Positions 1-11,843 of a stretch of DNA of 64,000 nucleotides are shown piece by piece. The DNA lies in contig JAITTL010000020.1 in the NCBI GenBank assembly GCA_031286985.1, positions 1-64,000 on the forward strand, read 5' to 3'. The notes under the pieces are model-generated. The model was given only the letters and a program-made list of their open reading frames with translations, made no database searches and had not been told where the DNA came from. How positions within the stretch are numbered: position 1 is the first letter of the stretch; the number at the start of each line of letters is the position of its first letter. A program made the position numbers and the translations under genes. This stretch comes from Endomicrobium sp. (GTDB taxonomy: Bacteria; Elusimicrobiota; Endomicrobiia; Endomicrobiales; Endomicrobiaceae).

Positions 1-1350
1 CTTCCACTTCTCTCCCTTCTCTTCTTCCTCTTTTACCATTCTTACCATCTCTCTAAATACTTCCTCCCCATAACTTACACTCCCTACGCTCCTTATCATG
101 TTCCCCACAAATCCTAAACTCCATTCCGCTTGACCCCTCACATCTGCATCTGTTGATAATGCTGCATTCATTGCTTCAATTTTATCTGATTTTTCTGAAA
201 CTTCTTTTTCATCACCATTGCTAGCTCCTCCCTTTGGACTGTGCAACCAAGAAGTAAAAGCAGTACCATTGGAGATCAATCCACTGCCTATCCTCTTTAT
301 TCCACTGCCTACACGATCATACATATAATTACATGTTTTATAAATTTTGGCAAACCAACCCTCTACTTGTGGTTCATTTGCTCCTATTTCTGTTTCTAAG
401 GATTCCGGTTCATCATCGTCCACTATCACTCCTTCTTGATCGACATTTTGGACTTCTTCTTTAGCAAGCCAGCCATCTTTCGGTGATCCACTTGCTTCCG
501 TGTCTACTTCTAAGGGTTCATCATCGTCCACTACCATCACTTCTTGATCTACATTTGGGACTTCTTCTTTAGCAAGCCAGCCATCTTTCGGTGGTCCACT
601 TGCTTCCATGTCTACTTCTAAGGGTTCATCGTCGTTCACTACCACCACTTCTTGATCGATATTTGGGACTTCTTCTATGGGTACTACATTATCTGCTGGT
701 ACTTCAGTTGTTATGTCACAACCACCTGTTACTATTTCTGTACCTCCTTCTGTTAATGCTTTTGTTTCTATTTCTGATTCTATTTCTGATTCTATTTCTG
801 TTTCTGTTCCTTCATAATTTGATAGTTCTCCAGCTCCTTCTTCTCGTTTTGCTCGTGCTTCTTCTCGCTTTGCTCGTGCTGCTTCCCGTCTTTCTCGTGC
901 TGCTTCCCGTCTTTCTCGTGCTTTTTGTGCTTCTTTTACGAAGGCTCGCACATTTACTCCTGCTTTTTGTGCTTCTTTTACGAAGGATTCGTCATTACAC
1001 GCTTCCTCAAGCACAGCAATAAACCCATGTAATATCTTAACACGACAAGTTTCTTGATGAGATATGTCTTCTCCAACAAGAAGGGTGATGGCGTTTATAG
1101 TTCTGTTAGCGTATCCATTCCTACGAGAGATTTTTGGCTCCTGATCGATAAAATTTTTTAAGTTTTTTAACTCCCCACATGTTGATTTAACTGTATATTT
1201 ACCTCCACATCTTATCTTTTTACTAGGTCTAAAACTCATCTCAAATTCAGACCACGCACCTTTTGATAAACCAACTACAACCATACACACAAGGCATAAA
1301 ATCATTAAGTATCTAATCTTACTGTTTACTACCCTCTCAATTAGTCTCAT
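1..1350 (-). CDS. Secreted/exported repeat-rich protein, partial (C-terminus beyond window edge)
   Basis: Continuous 450-codon minus-strand frame read by eye from ATG at 1350 to position 1 with no stop; SD-like GGGAGG upstream; N-terminus MRLIERVVNSKIRYLMILCLVCMVVVGLSKGAWS looks like a signal peptide; internal tandem repeats. Not in ORF track, probably because it runs off the edge. Confidence 0.85.
   Translation of the reverse strand, partial: MRLIERVVNSKIRYLMILCLVCMVVVGLSKGAWSEFEMSFRPSKKIRCGGKYTVKSTCGELKNLKNFIDQEPKISRRNGYANRTINAITLLVGEDISHQETCRVKILHGFIAVLEEACNDESFVKEAQKAGVNVRAFVKEAQKARERREAARERREAARAKREEARAKREEGAGELSNYEGTETEIESEIESEIETKALTEGGTEIVTGGCDITTEVPADNVVPIEEVPNIDQEVVVVNDDEPLEVDMEASGPPKDGWLAKEEVPNVDQEVMVVDDDEPLEVDTEASGSPKDGWLAKEEVQNVDQEGVIVDDDEPESLETEIGANEPQVEGWFAKIYKTCNYMYDRVGSGIKRIGSGLISNGTAFTSWLHSPKGGASNGDEKEVSEKSDKIEAMNAALSTDADVRGQAEWSLGFVGNMIRSVGSVSYGEEVFREMVRMVKEEEEKGEKWK
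346..675 (-). repeat. Three tandem copies of a ~36-aa (108-bp) repeat EEVPNxDQEVxVVxDDEPLEVDxEASGxPKDGWLAK
   Basis: The segment gacttcttct recurs at 451, 559 and 667 (period 108); two copies nearly identical, third diverged (38 aa). Confidence 0.9.
835..918 (-). repeat. Four tandem 21-bp units encoding heptads RERREAA/RAKREEA
   Basis: tgctgcttcccgtctttctcg twice and tgcttcttctcgctttgctcg-like twice, back to back. Confidence 0.9.
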
Positions 1351-1599
1351 GTTGCCTCCCTTTCTCTCCTCTGAAACTCAACAATCTTCCCTTATCTTCA
1401 CTTTATACAACTCATGTTCTTTTTCAACACGATTCACTTGTACGATTTTTCACCATGCCTTCAGCTCCACTCTCCAACTTCTTTCACTCTATGATACGGC
1501 AAACAACTAAAACCATTTCACACTTCTATTAACTTCCATAGCCTCTTTTCTTCTCTTTTCCTTCCAAACTGTTTCAGAGCTAACGGTTCTTAATGCTGA

Positions 1600-1930
1600 A
1601 ATTTCTTTATATATTTTCCATCTTTGCTTTTTTCATATGCAATAACACGCTTTTGTCTTCTACGTATAAACAGTTCATATAACTACCCTCTTAAGTTTTT
1701 TAACGTATGAACATCTCATCCATTTTTAATTTCTCCTTACCTGTTTGAGATATTCTTTTCATTCTGTAATTCATGTTCTCAAATGTCTCTCCACATCCCT
1801 TACACTCGTACCTCTGCCGTCCCTCACATACCCCTCTCTTTACATATTTCTTACTTAAACATAATCTTTTGGGAAAACAAAAACACTACCGTGGCATCCC
1901 TCCCCGATCTTCTTTTTAGGGCTATGTCGT
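1600..1930 (-). pseudogene. Degraded zinc-ribbon transposase remnant (IS1/IS1595-like)
   Basis: Minus-strand fragment KKYVKRGVCEGRQRYECKGCGETFENMNYRMKRISQTGKEKLKMDEMFIR* resembles a transposase zinc ribbon followed by a DE-type motif; interrupted by stops on both sides. Confidence 0.45.
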
Positions 1931-2595
1931 ACATACGTCTATTTTCTAAACATCCTCAAAAACAATTGTGGCAAAACAAAAAAAAACACAACAATTCCCG
2001 CTGGATACCCTCTTGTTGGTATGCCATTTATGCGCGTTTTAGTTACTATATTATTGCTGTTATGCGTAAATTATTTGTAATTATTGACAATTATTGCGTG
2101 TTGCGAATAGTCGTTTTGCCTTAGAAGGCCTTATTCTAGCACTTAATTATATTCTCTTTCAAGGTATTTTCTTTTTCAATTTTTTTCGGTAGGATAATAG
2201 AACTTTATGCTTATAACAAAAACTATAAAGTGAATGTTCATCAAATTTATAAGCAAAAAAATCGGGATACTGCTACCTTTTTAAAGAAGTCGTATGTGTT
2301 TAGTTACCACCAATCGCCTGTTTTTTCATATGGAATTCTTCAATCTAAAAAGTGATATACTTGCCATTAATGTTTCAATCGTATTTTAAGCAACAGCTTT
2401 CTTTAGCTGCAGAAATACAAAAAACCGCCCACTGTTTACGATAATAACATTATATCCTAACCTTTATACTACTTTGTGATGCTCAACGACATACTATGTG
2501 ATTTTTTACATTTTCTAATATTTTCGAGTATTTGAAATATATGAAAATCATTTCATTTCATCAATTTTATTGATGATAAATACTCCAAAGATGCT

Positions 2596-2784
2596 TCAAT
2601 AGCATATCGACTTTTTTTGCGTCGGTTGACCCGGATTCTGATTTGCCGTTTTTATAGCTTCCTCCAAAATAGGTTTTAAAATTTTCGCTCTTTTTCCCAT
2701 TTCATTAGCAACAGTCATCACATTCTCCAGTATCTCGACCTTTGTCTTATCTTTGTCTACAAATACTGACTTACTAATTCTTCA
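2596..2784 (-). pseudogene. Short coding-like fragment without evident start
   Basis: Minus-strand frame SKSVFVDKDKTKVEILENVMTVANEMGKRAKILKPILEEAIKTANQNPGQPTQKKSICY*; TGA immediately upstream. Confidence 0.3.
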
Positions 2785-3213
2785 ACTTATCTTAAAATAA
2801 GATTATCAATAAACACATTTCTTGTTGCACTATTTTTAAAAATCACGACACACAAAAGAATGATCTATACTTTCAAAGATCATATTTTTATTACTTTTTT
2901 CACAAAAACTTCCATATCAAAAACAATCGATTTTTTAACAGATATTTCAATGGCCTACTTCCATAATGGAGCATATCCACCAAATAAGAAAAAAGACGCA
3001 AAAAACTCTTTTAGAATTTATTTTTATCAGCAAAAAACACGACAGTTTGCTTAGCAAACGCCCGTATAAAAATACGTTAGTAGAATTTATTGTAGTAGTC
3101 GCGAAATCGTATTAGTATTCTGCCAAATCGCAGAAAAGCGTCATGGTAATTTTAAATAATAAAAATAGACACACTTAAATTAAATTGATACAATCCAGGC
3201 GTTGAGTAGAATA

Positions 3214-3318
3214 ATGGGTGCCATATAACAACAAAGCTGAGAAAGGAATTAAATTCCTTAACCATTTGAGGCTAATTGTCTCGGGAACCTGATGCGGGTA
3301 ATGCCGACGTAGGGAATA
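3214..3318 (+). ncRNA. TPP (THI-element) riboswitch
   Basis: gggtgcc...gctgaga...gggaacctgatgcgggtaatgccgacgtaggga matches the THI-box consensus, upstream of thiG. Confidence 0.95.
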
Positions 3319-7241: not shown

Positions 7242-10200
7242 CTAAAAACGCCCACTGTATTGAATCGCAATTTTGGGATATGATGTTTTATCGTTTGTTG
7301 TTTTGTCACTTATTACACTATTATCTAAATCACGATTACCCTTACTAATGTTATAACCACAGACTAAAAACAAATTTTCTGCCAATTTGAATTTTACATC
7401 TATTGATCCAGAGTTGAAAGCACAACTAAACGAACAGCCAACAGCGATTCTATCCATAAGATTTTTTTCAAATGAATAGTTTGCTTTAGATAAAAAACCT
7501 AGAAGACTACGGTCTGTCTTATTGTTGTCATTTTTATCGCTGTCATCAATAAAAAAATTAAAATCATCGATAAAGAAGTTAAAGCCCATTTTTTGAACGA
7601 ACGTTTTCACAAAAGGTGTCGCAAAATGTTTATCAACCGCATTTAAAAGCCCACTCTGCCCATCCAGAGTTTTATCCGTACTCTTTTGCAATTTATTCTC
7701 CACACCAATATTAGTATTTTTCTGACGTACGTTTTGACCACTTACTGAAATAAGATCATAAAGTTCAGATATTTTACATCTTTTAATAAAAATGGAAGGC
7801 TCTTTGTCTTTACTTGACGATACAAGTTTTTCATATTCAGCAGTTATATAAATTTTGTTATCATCTACTACTTCTAGCTTGGCCATTGGAACATTAAATT
7901 TCACACCAAAATGATTAATTAACTTTCCATCTGAAGTTGTAACTACACCCCTTACGTTAGGATGATCATAATATCCCTTAATCGACAAAGAGCCATCTAT
8001 CAATGCTGAAAAAAAATAATTCTCAAATTTTGTATTTTTAGAAGTTGCCAATTCCAAATCCAACTCTATGTTATCATGAATCAAAGAGCTTCCATTTCCT
8101 GGCCTTCCTGGAAAAGTAAAATGTGTATTGTTAAGTACAACACGTCCTGAAATTTTTGGACTTGCAGGAGTACCTTGTATCTTTATATCAAAACTTGGTT
8201 CGCCTGATGAATAATTTTTCAAAACAGAGTTTAAAATCATAAAAGTTGAGATTGGCAATTGAGGAATGCGCAAAGGAATCCCCTTTTCTCCGGTTGCAAC
8301 CCTTATATCGAAACCACTACAGCCAAAATTTTCTAATTTTAATTGTCCAGAGACATTAACTTTTCCAGAGCCTGATCTAAAATTAAATTTATCAATTTTT
8401 GCCAAATTTTTAACCAATGAAATCTTAACAAATACATCTTTTATTTTATTGAAATAATCTTTAAATTTAAATGATCCACCAGTTACAGAAAGTTGACCAT
8501 CATTATCAAGTTTTTCACAAGTTCCAGTAATAGATCCTTTAAAAAACATTTTTCCAGCATTAGCCCAAATATATTTACCAGACAAATGTTCCAAAATACG
8601 TAATTTATAATCGTTAATTTCATAAGAAATATTTACAAATTTCTTTTTCATTTCATTAGATAAAGTTTGATCAAACCATAATGGAAACTTTCCATGAGCA
8701 AATGCATGAATTTCATTGCGTTTAAATAAAGACAGCTCTTTTATATGAACAAAATTGTTACTGTAATCTACTTTGACATCCAAATTATCATATGGGATTT
8801 TAGAAAAAAAACCATTTGTCGAAGTCAGTGACATATTTCCTCTTGGATTACTAACATTTCCTGATAAATTAGCGCTTATATTTATATTCCCAATAAGAAT
8901 TGGAGACAAATTTAAAATATCCGTTATATAACGCCCATTTATGTTCGATCCATCGACACCAACATTTATAAAGCCATTTGAAAAATCTGCAAATAAATTT
9001 AAAAAAACTTTATCTTTTGAAATATTTAATTTTTTCACAGATATTCTATCTCCAAAAGCAACTACGCCCGAAAAATTATATTGGTCCACAGTATCGACTT
9101 TTTTATGAAATTCTAGTGTTTTGTCTTTAATAACATAATCAAAACACGAAGACAGTTTATGCTTATTTATCCATAAATTATTCAAACTAACTGTTCCTCT
9201 ATATATGAATTTACCCTTCTGGCCGGAGGAGACATTACCTGATAAACACACGTTGCCAAAAATATCTACAACTCCTGCATGAACGTTTATCAAAGACAAA
9301 TTAAGTCCGTATTTCCCATCTTTGATGTTGAAATACCCGTTATCTAACTCTATTTTACTGTCTAAAATTCTAGCAGAAGCGTTACTTACAGTAATTTTAT
9401 TATCACTAACTTCAATATCCGATTCAACTTCATTTAACTTCATATTTTCGATATAAACTGTTTCAGCTGTTAAAAACATTTTCAATCTTTGTTTCTCATT
9501 TTTAACCTTAAGAAATCCTTCACTAGAAATATTTCCTTTTAAAGGTATTTTGAAATTAAAAAATGTGTTGATGCTATTTTCAGTTAAATCACTGATTTTA
9601 AAAAAGAATTTACCCTCTTTATAATACTGCCCTTTTGCTTCAATTTTTGTCTCATCTACTAAAAACATGACTTTATTTACATTAACAATCCCATTTTTAT
9701 ACTCTAACTCAGATGATATAAAGAAAGGTTTGGATAGATATTTTCCATTTATTGTAGAAGCTGTAATCTCTATATCGGGGTCACTTAATTTACCCGAAAA
9801 CTTCACAAGAAAATTTAAAAATCCAGACACGTTAGGATAAATACCACAAATATTCACATTCTTAAATTCAAAATATCCGGATAGCTTATTTTCTTTAAAT
9901 TTTGCTAACAAAGAAGCACCCACACACGTATCAGATTTAACATTGAAAATTTCTAATTTTTCATTCGAAATCACAGCATCTGCTGAAATGTTACCAAGGG
10001 ATACCCCTGCTACAGTTATTCCAGATCCATTAATACTACCTTCTATGTTATTGTGCCCAATTAAACGGCCTTTAAATTTTACTGATCCGTTTAAGGTTAC
10101 TCCGTTTATATTTATACCATTCATATCAATATAAAAGGAAGATGTGGAATTTTTATCCTTAAGATAAAATTTCCCAGCCATATCCACCGCCACCTTTCCT

Positions 10201-11843
10201 GAATAGTCAATGAGAGCAAAACGCTTAATATTTATCTCTTTTGAGTCTGCATTAGCATTCACCTCAATCTTTTTAAATTTACTACCACATATCGTACCAT
10301 CAAAAATCTTAATATCAAGTGCTGTTAGCAAATCTTGTTCATATTTTACATGTCCATTCAATAAGCCAGAAATATTATGATTAAAATATTTATTTGCAAT
10401 GCCAACTCCAACAAATTTTAACTCTGTTGAAATTATTTTTCCATTTTTGATAACAGCATTTAAAGAAATTATATCGCCATCTTTACCAACATCTAATATA
10501 TACGTACCGTTATTTCGCGTTAAAGTTCCAGTTATATCTGCATTGTTTACATCTGACAAATTTAAATCTTTAATTTTGAAATCAATCCGTCCTAAAGCTT
10601 TATCTAAAAATCCGGAAACACTTATAGTTCCTCTATCGCCTTTTGCAACCAAAGGGATTAAAAAAATATCGGAAACATGAATATCCTTCATATCAACTAA
10701 AATTTTACCTGTTTCGGTATTACCACTAATAACACCTACTATTTTATTTTTAATGATAAAATTAGCTTTGTATTGGTGGCCGTCATCTGTATATATAATA
10801 TCTATCTTTTTACCGGTTTTGGGCGTGGAAGATACGTTATAATTATTCTTGTCTTTTCTACGCAACAATCTTAGATTTCCACAGTCAAAACCATAAATCG
10901 CTAATTCAGTTATATCCAATTCTACATTGGCAACATCATTATATTGTCCTTTAAAATTTAATTTAACTGTTCCTGAAATATTTCTATGGATTTTTGAAAT
11001 GTCAATGTTGGACTTAGCCTCTATCACACCATCGGATGCATAATTAAGTTTAAAATTGCCAAACATTCCCGTTAGATTTACGTTACTGTTTTCTGCAGTT
11101 CTCGAAAAAAAACAAGAAGAAGTGTTTAAATTGAACCCGTTGTATAGAAATTTTTCAATCACAACATTTTGAATAACATCTAGCGATGAAAAATCTATTG
11201 TTCCTTCTGAACGTAAATACATGTCCACTTTATTTTTTGCAACAAAAACGGATGAGGTATTAAAAATATTTTTTGTTTTTCTTTCAAATTGTGAACTGAA
11301 TTTTATTGGAATATTTGATGCATGCATAACAGAATTAATGATAATTTTGTCATGATTGGCCAGTATGTCCACATCTGCAATTTTTAAAAACTTTGAATTC
11401 TTAACAGCCACACACTCATCTACGCAAATTACAATTCCATGTTTAGGAAGTTTGGCAAAAAAATTACCTCTACTTAATATGAGATTATTACGTTTATTAC
11501 CAGCATCTTTGTCTAAATAGATTTTAAGTTTTGAAATGTTTACTTTACTTATAAAATCAGACGAAGAAGTCATGAACATAAGTAATCTTAATGGTGTTGT
11601 TTTAAACGTAATTTTATTAGCTTCAATTATTCCATTTATTTTCAAATTTTTTAAAGTTAAACCGAAAGGTACTATACATAATTTTTCAAAAGTTACTTCA
11701 TAACCTGTTTTAGCGCAAAGATATCTGTGAACGATATGTCCTAACGTATGCGTTTTTGCGCAATATCCATAAATCAGAACAATTGAAGTGACAAGAACAT
11801 ATATGGTATATCTTGAGAATCTGCGCATAGCTTGTGCCTTCAA
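7242..11843 (-). CDS. TamB/DUF490 (AsmA-like) family protein
   Basis: 1533 aa; N-terminal TM segment, long repetitive beta-rich body, C-terminal DUF490-like region. Confidence 0.8.
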   Translation of the reverse strand: MKAQAMRRFSRYTIYVLVTSIVLIYGYCAKTHTLGHIVHRYLCAKTGYEVTFEKLCIVPFGLTLKNLKINGIIEANKITFKTTPLRLLMFMTSSSDFISKVNISKLKIYLDKDAGNKRNNLILSRGNFFAKLPKHGIVICVDECVAVKNSKFLKIADVDILANHDKIIINSVMHASNIPIKFSSQFERKTKNIFNTSSVFVAKNKVDMYLRSEGTIDFSSLDVIQNVVIEKFLYNGFNLNTSSCFFSRTAENSNVNLTGMFGNFKLNYASDGVIEAKSNIDISKIHRNISGTVKLNFKGQYNDVANVELDITELAIYGFDCGNLRLLRRKDKNNYNVSSTPKTGKKIDIIYTDDGHQYKANFIIKNKIVGVISGNTETGKILVDMKDIHVSDIFLIPLVAKGDRGTISVSGFLDKALGRIDFKIKDLNLSDVNNADITGTLTRNNGTYILDVGKDGDIISLNAVIKNGKIISTELKFVGVGIANKYFNHNISGLLNGHVKYEQDLLTALDIKIFDGTICGSKFKKIEVNANADSKEINIKRFALIDYSGKVAVDMAGKFYLKDKNSTSSFYIDMNGININGVTLNGSVKFKGRLIGHNNIEGSINGSGITVAGVSLGNISADAVISNEKLEIFNVKSDTCVGASLLAKFKENKLSGYFEFKNVNICGIYPNVSGFLNFLVKFSGKLSDPDIEITASTINGKYLSKPFFISSELEYKNGIVNVNKVMFLVDETKIEAKGQYYKEGKFFFKISDLTENSINTFFNFKIPLKGNISSEGFLKVKNEKQRLKMFLTAETVYIENMKLNEVESDIEVSDNKITVSNASARILDSKIELDNGYFNIKDGKYGLNLSLINVHAGVVDIFGNVCLSGNVSSGQKGKFIYRGTVSLNNLWINKHKLSSCFDYVIKDKTLEFHKKVDTVDQYNFSGVVAFGDRISVKKLNISKDKVFLNLFADFSNGFINVGVDGSNINGRYITDILNLSPILIGNINISANLSGNVSNPRGNMSLTSTNGFFSKIPYDNLDVKVDYSNNFVHIKELSLFKRNEIHAFAHGKFPLWFDQTLSNEMKKKFVNISYEINDYKLRILEHLSGKYIWANAGKMFFKGSITGTCEKLDNDGQLSVTGGSFKFKDYFNKIKDVFVKISLVKNLAKIDKFNFRSGSGKVNVSGQLKLENFGCSGFDIRVATGEKGIPLRIPQLPISTFMILNSVLKNYSSGEPSFDIKIQGTPASPKISGRVVLNNTHFTFPGRPGNGSSLIHDNIELDLELATSKNTKFENYFFSALIDGSLSIKGYYDHPNVRGVVTTSDGKLINHFGVKFNVPMAKLEVVDDNKIYITAEYEKLVSSSKDKEPSIFIKRCKISELYDLISVSGQNVRQKNTNIGVENKLQKSTDKTLDGQSGLLNAVDKHFATPFVKTFVQKMGFNFFIDDFNFFIDDSDKNDNNKTDRSLLGFLSKANYSFEKNLMDRIAVGCSFSCAFNSGSIDVKFKLAENLFLVCGYNISKGNRDLDNSVISDKTTNDKTSYPKIAIQYSGRF

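What the first reader, a model, noticed from the sequence alone, without database searches (positions are those of the whole stretch)
1..1350. Unlisted large secreted repeat protein running off the window edge
The minus strand is open for 450 codons from an ATG with a good SD, with a signal-peptide-like N-terminus, Cys-containing first ~110 aa, then charged heptads, an (I/T)ESE-type stretch, three 36-aa acidic repeats and a non-repetitive tail. The ORF track reports only a meaningless Leu-rich antisense ORF here. I recognise no family. A modular exported protein of this kind is a candidate surface or host-interaction factor; that role is inference.
Basis: partly seen in the sequence, partly recalled or inferred. 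Interest (0 to 1): 0.75.

Follow-up and report, generated by a model that had tools for sequence, protein, structure and literature searches.

The report
Truncated member of shuffled autotransporter family
The "unknown secreted protein" at the window edge is the first part of a self-exporting surface protein (autotransporter), one of about 20 in this termite-gut Endomicrobium-group bacterium that share an export signal and a membrane pore but carry very different cargo, in a few copies ADP-ribose-type enzymes.

Summary
In detail: an intact 450-codon minus-strand ORF starts at 1350 and runs off contig position 1. The interpretation (exported, probably host-facing) is supported. The last 59 residues are 69-89% identical to the start of the translocator region of paralogs in the same genome. 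Paralogs with an intact 3' end carry the Pfam autotransporter beta-domain PF03797 (E 1e-9 to 1e-18). A low-confidence model of one of these barrels still matches solved autotransporter barrels best (AaaA, BrkA, EstA, EspP). The window protein is therefore most likely a classical type Va autotransporter cut off by the assembly. The contigs break in this multi-copy family: about 28 of 68 contig ends lie in it. The organism is an Endomicrobium/"Endomicrobiellum" relative. The roughly 20 family genes reuse a leader plus signal peptide and a barrel in discordant combinations, with unrelated passengers: repeats, coiled coils, macro domains, NUDIX and DUF1810. This barrel subfamily was not found in sampled congeners. 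The host role is inferred. New variant of a known kind.

The parts
1..1350 (-). Partial CDS (450 aa, 3' end missing at the contig edge): autotransporter precursor
1249..1434 (-). Shared leader plus signal-peptide cassette, 85% DNA identity to C11 and 79% to C9 (starts about 84 bp upstream of the ATG)
1355..1360 (-). Shine-Dalgarno GGGAGG, 4-5 nt from the ATG
   Evidence: direct reading
1249..1350 (-). Signal peptide (aa 1-34), shared with about nine paralogs; probable cleavage AWS|E
   Evidence: cleavage site inferred
976..1248 (-). N-terminal passenger segment (aa 35-125), four Cys, no known relative
832..975 (-). Charged heptad/helical segment (aa 126-173), best-scoring helix of the model
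679..831 (-). Acidic low-complexity segment (aa 174-224) with TETEIESEIESEIETK
352..675 (-). 36-aa acidic repeats: aa 226-261, 262-297 (31/36 identical), 298-333 (degenerate)
139..315 (-). Linker (aa 346-404); its last residues are shared with C29/C6
1..177 (-). aa 392-450: pre-barrel region, predicted helix and start of the PF03797 translocator domain (..LGFVGNMIRSVGSVSYGEEVFREM..KWK); truncated
7242..11843 (-). TamB-family protein (1533 aa) encoded 6 kb away; in other bacteria the TAM complex assists autotransporter assembly
   Evidence: role from general knowledge

Best explanation
The ORF is the 5' 450 codons of a classical (type Va) autotransporter. It would be made with an N-terminal Sec signal peptide and cross the inner membrane. 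A C-terminal 12-stranded beta-barrel, lost here at the contig edge, would then be inserted in the outer membrane by BamA (gene present) with help from TamB (gene present). The passenger (Cys-bearing segment, charged helix, acidic 36-aa repeats) would be exposed on the cell surface or released towards the flagellate cytoplasm or gut. It belongs to a lineage-specific family of about 20 genes in which a leader/signal cassette and a barrel are recombined with unrelated passengers. Steps shown: intact ORF, shared signal and translocator start, PF03797 in paralogs, mosaic structure, BamA and TamB genes. Steps inferred: the missing barrel, actual export, surface exposure and host-directed role.
For: aa 392-450 match paralogs on C29, C6, C20, C28 and C21 at 69-89% identity, E down to 2.5e-24, all in open frames. 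The intact paralogs among these carry PF03797 with E 2e-10 to 2e-15 and end in ..ANLGF(N/S)YKF, a C-terminal beta-signal-like pattern. The barrel model, though weak (pLDDT 50, pTM 0.46), has one helix followed by about 11-12 strands, and its best PDB matches are the autotransporters AaaA, BrkA, EstA, EspP, Hbp and NalP (E 1e-6 to 4e-4). Own-genome profile search finds about 25 barrel pieces. About 28 of 68 contig ends lie in the family, as 14 5' halves and 13-14 3' halves, several with exact 119-bp shared ends typical of assembly repeats. An Omp85/BamA gene (E 1.3e-47) and a TamB gene are present.
Against: The window protein itself contains only about 45-59 residues of the translocator region, and Pfam, NCBIfam and PHROGs find nothing in it. 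No contig end shares an exact overlap that would identify its 3' half. No expression, export or surface data exist. At least two relatives are frameshifted (C9 start, C9 end), so some copies may be decaying.
Confidence: 0.9

Rival explanations
1. The gene is a passenger-bearing remnant: a recombination product or decaying copy without a functional barrel, part of the genome erosion known in this group.
For: The 3' end is not seen; two related copies on contig C9 are frameshifted; the 2-kb upstream region is non-coding debris; Endomicrobiellum genomes are eroding (PMC11257099).
Against: The whole 450 codons are open with a good SD; the shared tail is in frame and highly conserved with intact paralogs; most family copies are open.
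Confidence: 0.08
2. An exported or periplasmic protein of another kind (e.g. lipoprotein or repeat-rich envelope protein) that merely shares a short segment with autotransporters.
For: No barrel is visible in the window; low-complexity charged repeats are common in envelope proteins; no family matches.
Against: The shared segment is the conserved helix/first-strand start of the translocator, followed by a barrel in every paralog that continues; the signal-peptide cassette is shared with C6, C20 and C29, and C6 and C20 end in barrels. No lipobox was seen.
Confidence: 0.04
3. An assembly or binning artefact joining unrelated pieces.
For: It lies at a contig edge in a metagenome-assembled genome.
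Against: The signal peptide is related to C11 and C9 of the same bin and the tail to five other contigs of the same bin; contamination is estimated at 0.04%. Edges share exact 119-mers, which is normal repeat breakage.
Confidence: 0.02

Closest known systems
Classical autotransporters (type Va secretion, PF03797), e.g. BrkA, EspP, NalP, EstA, AIDA-I
   Same: N-terminal export signal, variable passenger, helix plus C-terminal beta-barrel in intact paralogs
   Different: Sequence identity of barrels is low (11-17% in fold matches); the passenger is disordered/helical/acidic rather than a beta-helix; some sister passengers are ADP-ribose/NUDIX-type domains
Autotransporters of other Endomicrobium-group genomes (G027, G024, G028, G026, G023, G017, G032, G004)
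   Same: PF03797 barrels; some match the profile of this family (E to 5e-28)
   Different: Passengers look like PMP/beta-helix repeat proteins; one has an added OmpA domain; the window protein, its signal cassette and its close barrel subfamily were not found there
Multi-copy polymorphic autotransporters of intracellular bacteria (Chlamydia Pmp, Rickettsia Sca families); from general knowledge, not compared by sequence here
   Same: Expanded surface autotransporter set in a small-genome, host-associated bacterium
   Different: Here the leader/signal and barrel are near-uniform and passengers are unrelated to one another

Membership tests
Classical autotransporter (type Va) | N-terminal Sec signal peptide | tested here: met
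   Charged n-region, hydropathy peak 3.2, AWS motif before a likely cleavage at 34/35; conserved across paralogs. SignalP itself was not available.
Classical autotransporter (type Va) | C-terminal PF03797 12-stranded beta-barrel | tested here: inconclusive
   Truncated in the window protein. Only the start is present, 69-89% identical to paralogs. In intact paralogs the feature is met.
Classical autotransporter (type Va) | Terminal aromatic residue / beta-signal recognised by BamA | tested here: inconclusive
   Not present in the truncated ORF; intact C6, C20, C28 and C21b end in GANLGF(N/S)YKF
Classical autotransporter (type Va) | Assembly machinery in the genome (BamA, TAM) | tested here: met
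   Omp85 at C28:15142-16152, E 1.3e-47; TamB at window 7242-11843. TamA was not separately sought; only one Omp85 was found.
Classical autotransporter (type Va) | Passenger translocated to the cell surface | not testable with these tools
   Needs an experiment
Trimeric autotransporter (YadA type) | C-terminal YadA anchor domain (four strands per subunit) | tested here: not met
   No YadA-type anchor in Pfam scans of intact paralogs; PF03797 found instead
Lipoprotein | Lipobox Cys at the end of the hydrophobic stretch | tested here: not met
   Cys 19 and 22 lie inside the hydrophobic core without an L-[AS]-[GA]-C box (direct reading)

The most novel reading that the evidence does not exclude
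The endosymbiont uses a recombining signal/barrel cassette as an interchangeable display platform. Through it, it exports diverse cargo, including macro-domain, NUDIX and DUF1810 proteins, into its flagellate host, for example to act on ADP-ribose or nucleotide signals. The window gene would be one such cassette.
Probability: 0.3. Interest if true: 0.75.

Novelty: new variant of a known kind. Interest (0 to 1): 0.52.

Why it matters
How Endomicrobium-group symbionts of termite gut flagellates interact with their hosts is poorly known. The main genome paper discusses metabolism and its text does not mention autotransporters, secretion or effectors (PMC11257099). A mosaic, lineage-specific autotransporter set in a roughly 1-Mb genome would give a concrete list of candidate host-facing proteins, some with recognisable enzyme domains that can be assayed. 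It also explains why this assembly breaks where it does, a warning that such families are systematically truncated in short-read assemblies of symbionts.

Tried and rejected
Full-length searches: Pfam, NCBIfam and PHROGs gave nothing for the window protein. Genome-contig search found no relative, and the plasmid collection gave no match. PDB sequence searches with the Cys segment gave nothing, and the barrel profile gave only NalP at E 0.38. The broad barrel alignment A3 was too variable for a pattern scan, and a viral-contig scan gave no answer. A single-sequence fold of the window protein was poor (pLDDT 41.5, pTM 0.26) and was used only to note helix in 134-171. Extending past position 1 by contig-end overlap failed: no exact shared end with C4 start. 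Chance ORF rejected (p about 7e-16, plus paralogs). The lipoprotein and trimeric-autotransporter readings were rejected (membership table). Promoter scan: no excess over shuffles. The codon-position test on the shared tail is weak: there are too few changes, with a third-position excess only against C28, C29 and C6.

Full report
What was checked. The minus-strand ORF at 1-1350 is real as described: 450 open codons, ATG at 1350, SD GGGAGG at 1360-1355, hydrophobic N-terminus, four-Cys segment, charged helix, ESE stretch, acidic 36-aa repeats, then a tail. The window begins exactly at base 1 of contig C4 of a 34-contig, 984-kb genome bin (95% complete, 0.04% contamination), so the ORF is cut by the assembly. 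The third repeat is degenerate.

What it is. Searching the same genome shows two shared modules. The N-terminal 39 residues match C11 (79%) and C9 (76%), and more weakly C33, C15, C31, C20 and C29. The last 59 residues match C29, C6, C20, C28 and C21 at 69-89%. Paralogs that continue past this point carry the autotransporter beta-domain PF03797: C6 9e-13, C20 1.6e-12, C28 2.1e-15, C21b 1.8e-10, C16b 2.9e-9. More divergent ones are C23 2.1e-15, C9 1.1e-12, C14 1.1e-15 and C22 9e-18. Four of them end ..GANLGF(N/S)YKF. A five-sequence AlphaFold model of the barrel is low confidence (pLDDT 49.9, pTM 0.46) but has one helix then about 11-12 long strands. Its best PDB matches are autotransporter barrels: AaaA, BrkA, EstA, EspP, Hbp and NalP. 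The window tail aligns with the helix and first strand of this domain. I conclude the window gene is a truncated autotransporter gene. Its own barrel is inferred, not seen.

Family size and assembly. A barrel profile finds about 25 pieces in the genome. Reading all 68 contig ends shows 14 ending in the 5' part of a family gene and 13-14 ending in a 3' barrel part, about 28 ends in all. Binomial chance is 5e-19 if the family covers 5% of the genome and 8e-14 at 8%; the coverage figures are my estimates. Several ends share exact 119-base overlaps, equal to the largest MEGAHIT k-mer in Mies et al. 2024 (PMC11257099), so this bin may come from that study (inference). Seven unbroken copies plus about 14 broken ones give roughly 20 genes. 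Some 5' pieces are assigned by signal peptide only.

Mosaic structure. DNA blocks shared between copies are discordant. The window leader/signal is closest to C11 (85%) and C9 end (79%). Its tail is closest to C21b (96%), C20 (95%) and C28 (92%), and C21b has an unrelated signal peptide. C11's pre-barrel stretch is 94% identical to C29, whose signal differs. C12 shares its upstream 204 bp with C29 (86%) but a passenger end with C9 (89%). Recombination between copies is the simplest reading; no formal recombination test was run.

Passengers. Most have no family. Recognisable ones are macro domains on C21 and C16 (E 7.6e-27 and 1.7e-19; both copies break just after the shared linker), DUF1810 on C23 (9.9e-45) and NUDIX on C9 (3.4e-8), the last two fused to PF03797. 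Catalytic activity is not tested. The C9 NUDIX copy is frameshifted inside its barrel.

Organism and distribution. The nearby ThiH is 75-79% identical to Endomicrobium and Candidatus Endomicrobiellum MAGs, a group described from termite guts (PMC11257099). Among 42 other sampled genomes of the genus, 18 have PF03797 matches, with 1-7 listed per genome, often in PMP-like repeat proteins. PF03797 itself finds 11 in G000, fewer than the family profile, so raw counts should be compared with care. The window protein has no match in 60 relatives searched, nor in 85,462 species genomes by pattern scan (close relatives only). Whether this particular organism is a flagellate endosymbiont or free-living in the gut was not established here.

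How it most likely works. The signal peptide directs Sec export. BamA (Omp85, E 1.3e-47) and TamB (window 7242-11843) are present to insert the barrel, which would carry the acidic, repeat-bearing passenger outside. Whether the passenger stays attached or is cleaved is unknown. A role towards the flagellate is inference from lifestyle; no text on autotransporters or secretion was found in the main genome paper, nor any held paper with both "Endomicrobium" and "autotransporter".

Verdict. Observation confirmed. Interpretation supported and made specific. New variant of a known kind.

Noticed in passing
L027:1-1545 (-) and L031:1-1008 (-): Secreted-looking macro-domain proteins whose C-terminal segment matches the autotransporter linker; both break at a contig edge sharing an exact 119-mer
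   Followed up: partly
L044:1501-3348 (-): DUF1810 domain fused to an autotransporter barrel; several congeners have DUF1810 proteins of 190-350 aa without a barrel in the frame
   Followed up: partly
L045:195-1858 (+): NUDIX domain fused to an autotransporter barrel, frameshifted near the end of the barrel
   Followed up: partly
L063:1-3261 (+), genome G027: Autotransporter barrel followed by FlgD-like and OmpA domains, an unusual order with the barrel not at the C-terminus
   Followed up: no
L115:1-2292 (-): 764-aa secreted-looking protein with an NPGNCGIHAL motif reminiscent of cysteine peptidases; no Pfam or PDB match
   Followed up: partly
window 1351-3300: About 2 kb without intact genes; reading frames show broken fragments, one with a zinc-ribbon-like CKGCGETF piece (Pfam below cut-off), perhaps a transposase remnant
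   Followed up: partly
L105, L097, L138, L142 contig edges (C23, C13, C26, C34): Another multi-copy gene family (AIDYINTIEKKEKVLLLTAY...) also breaks contigs; sensor-kinase-like repeats at C7, C24, C32
   Followed up: no
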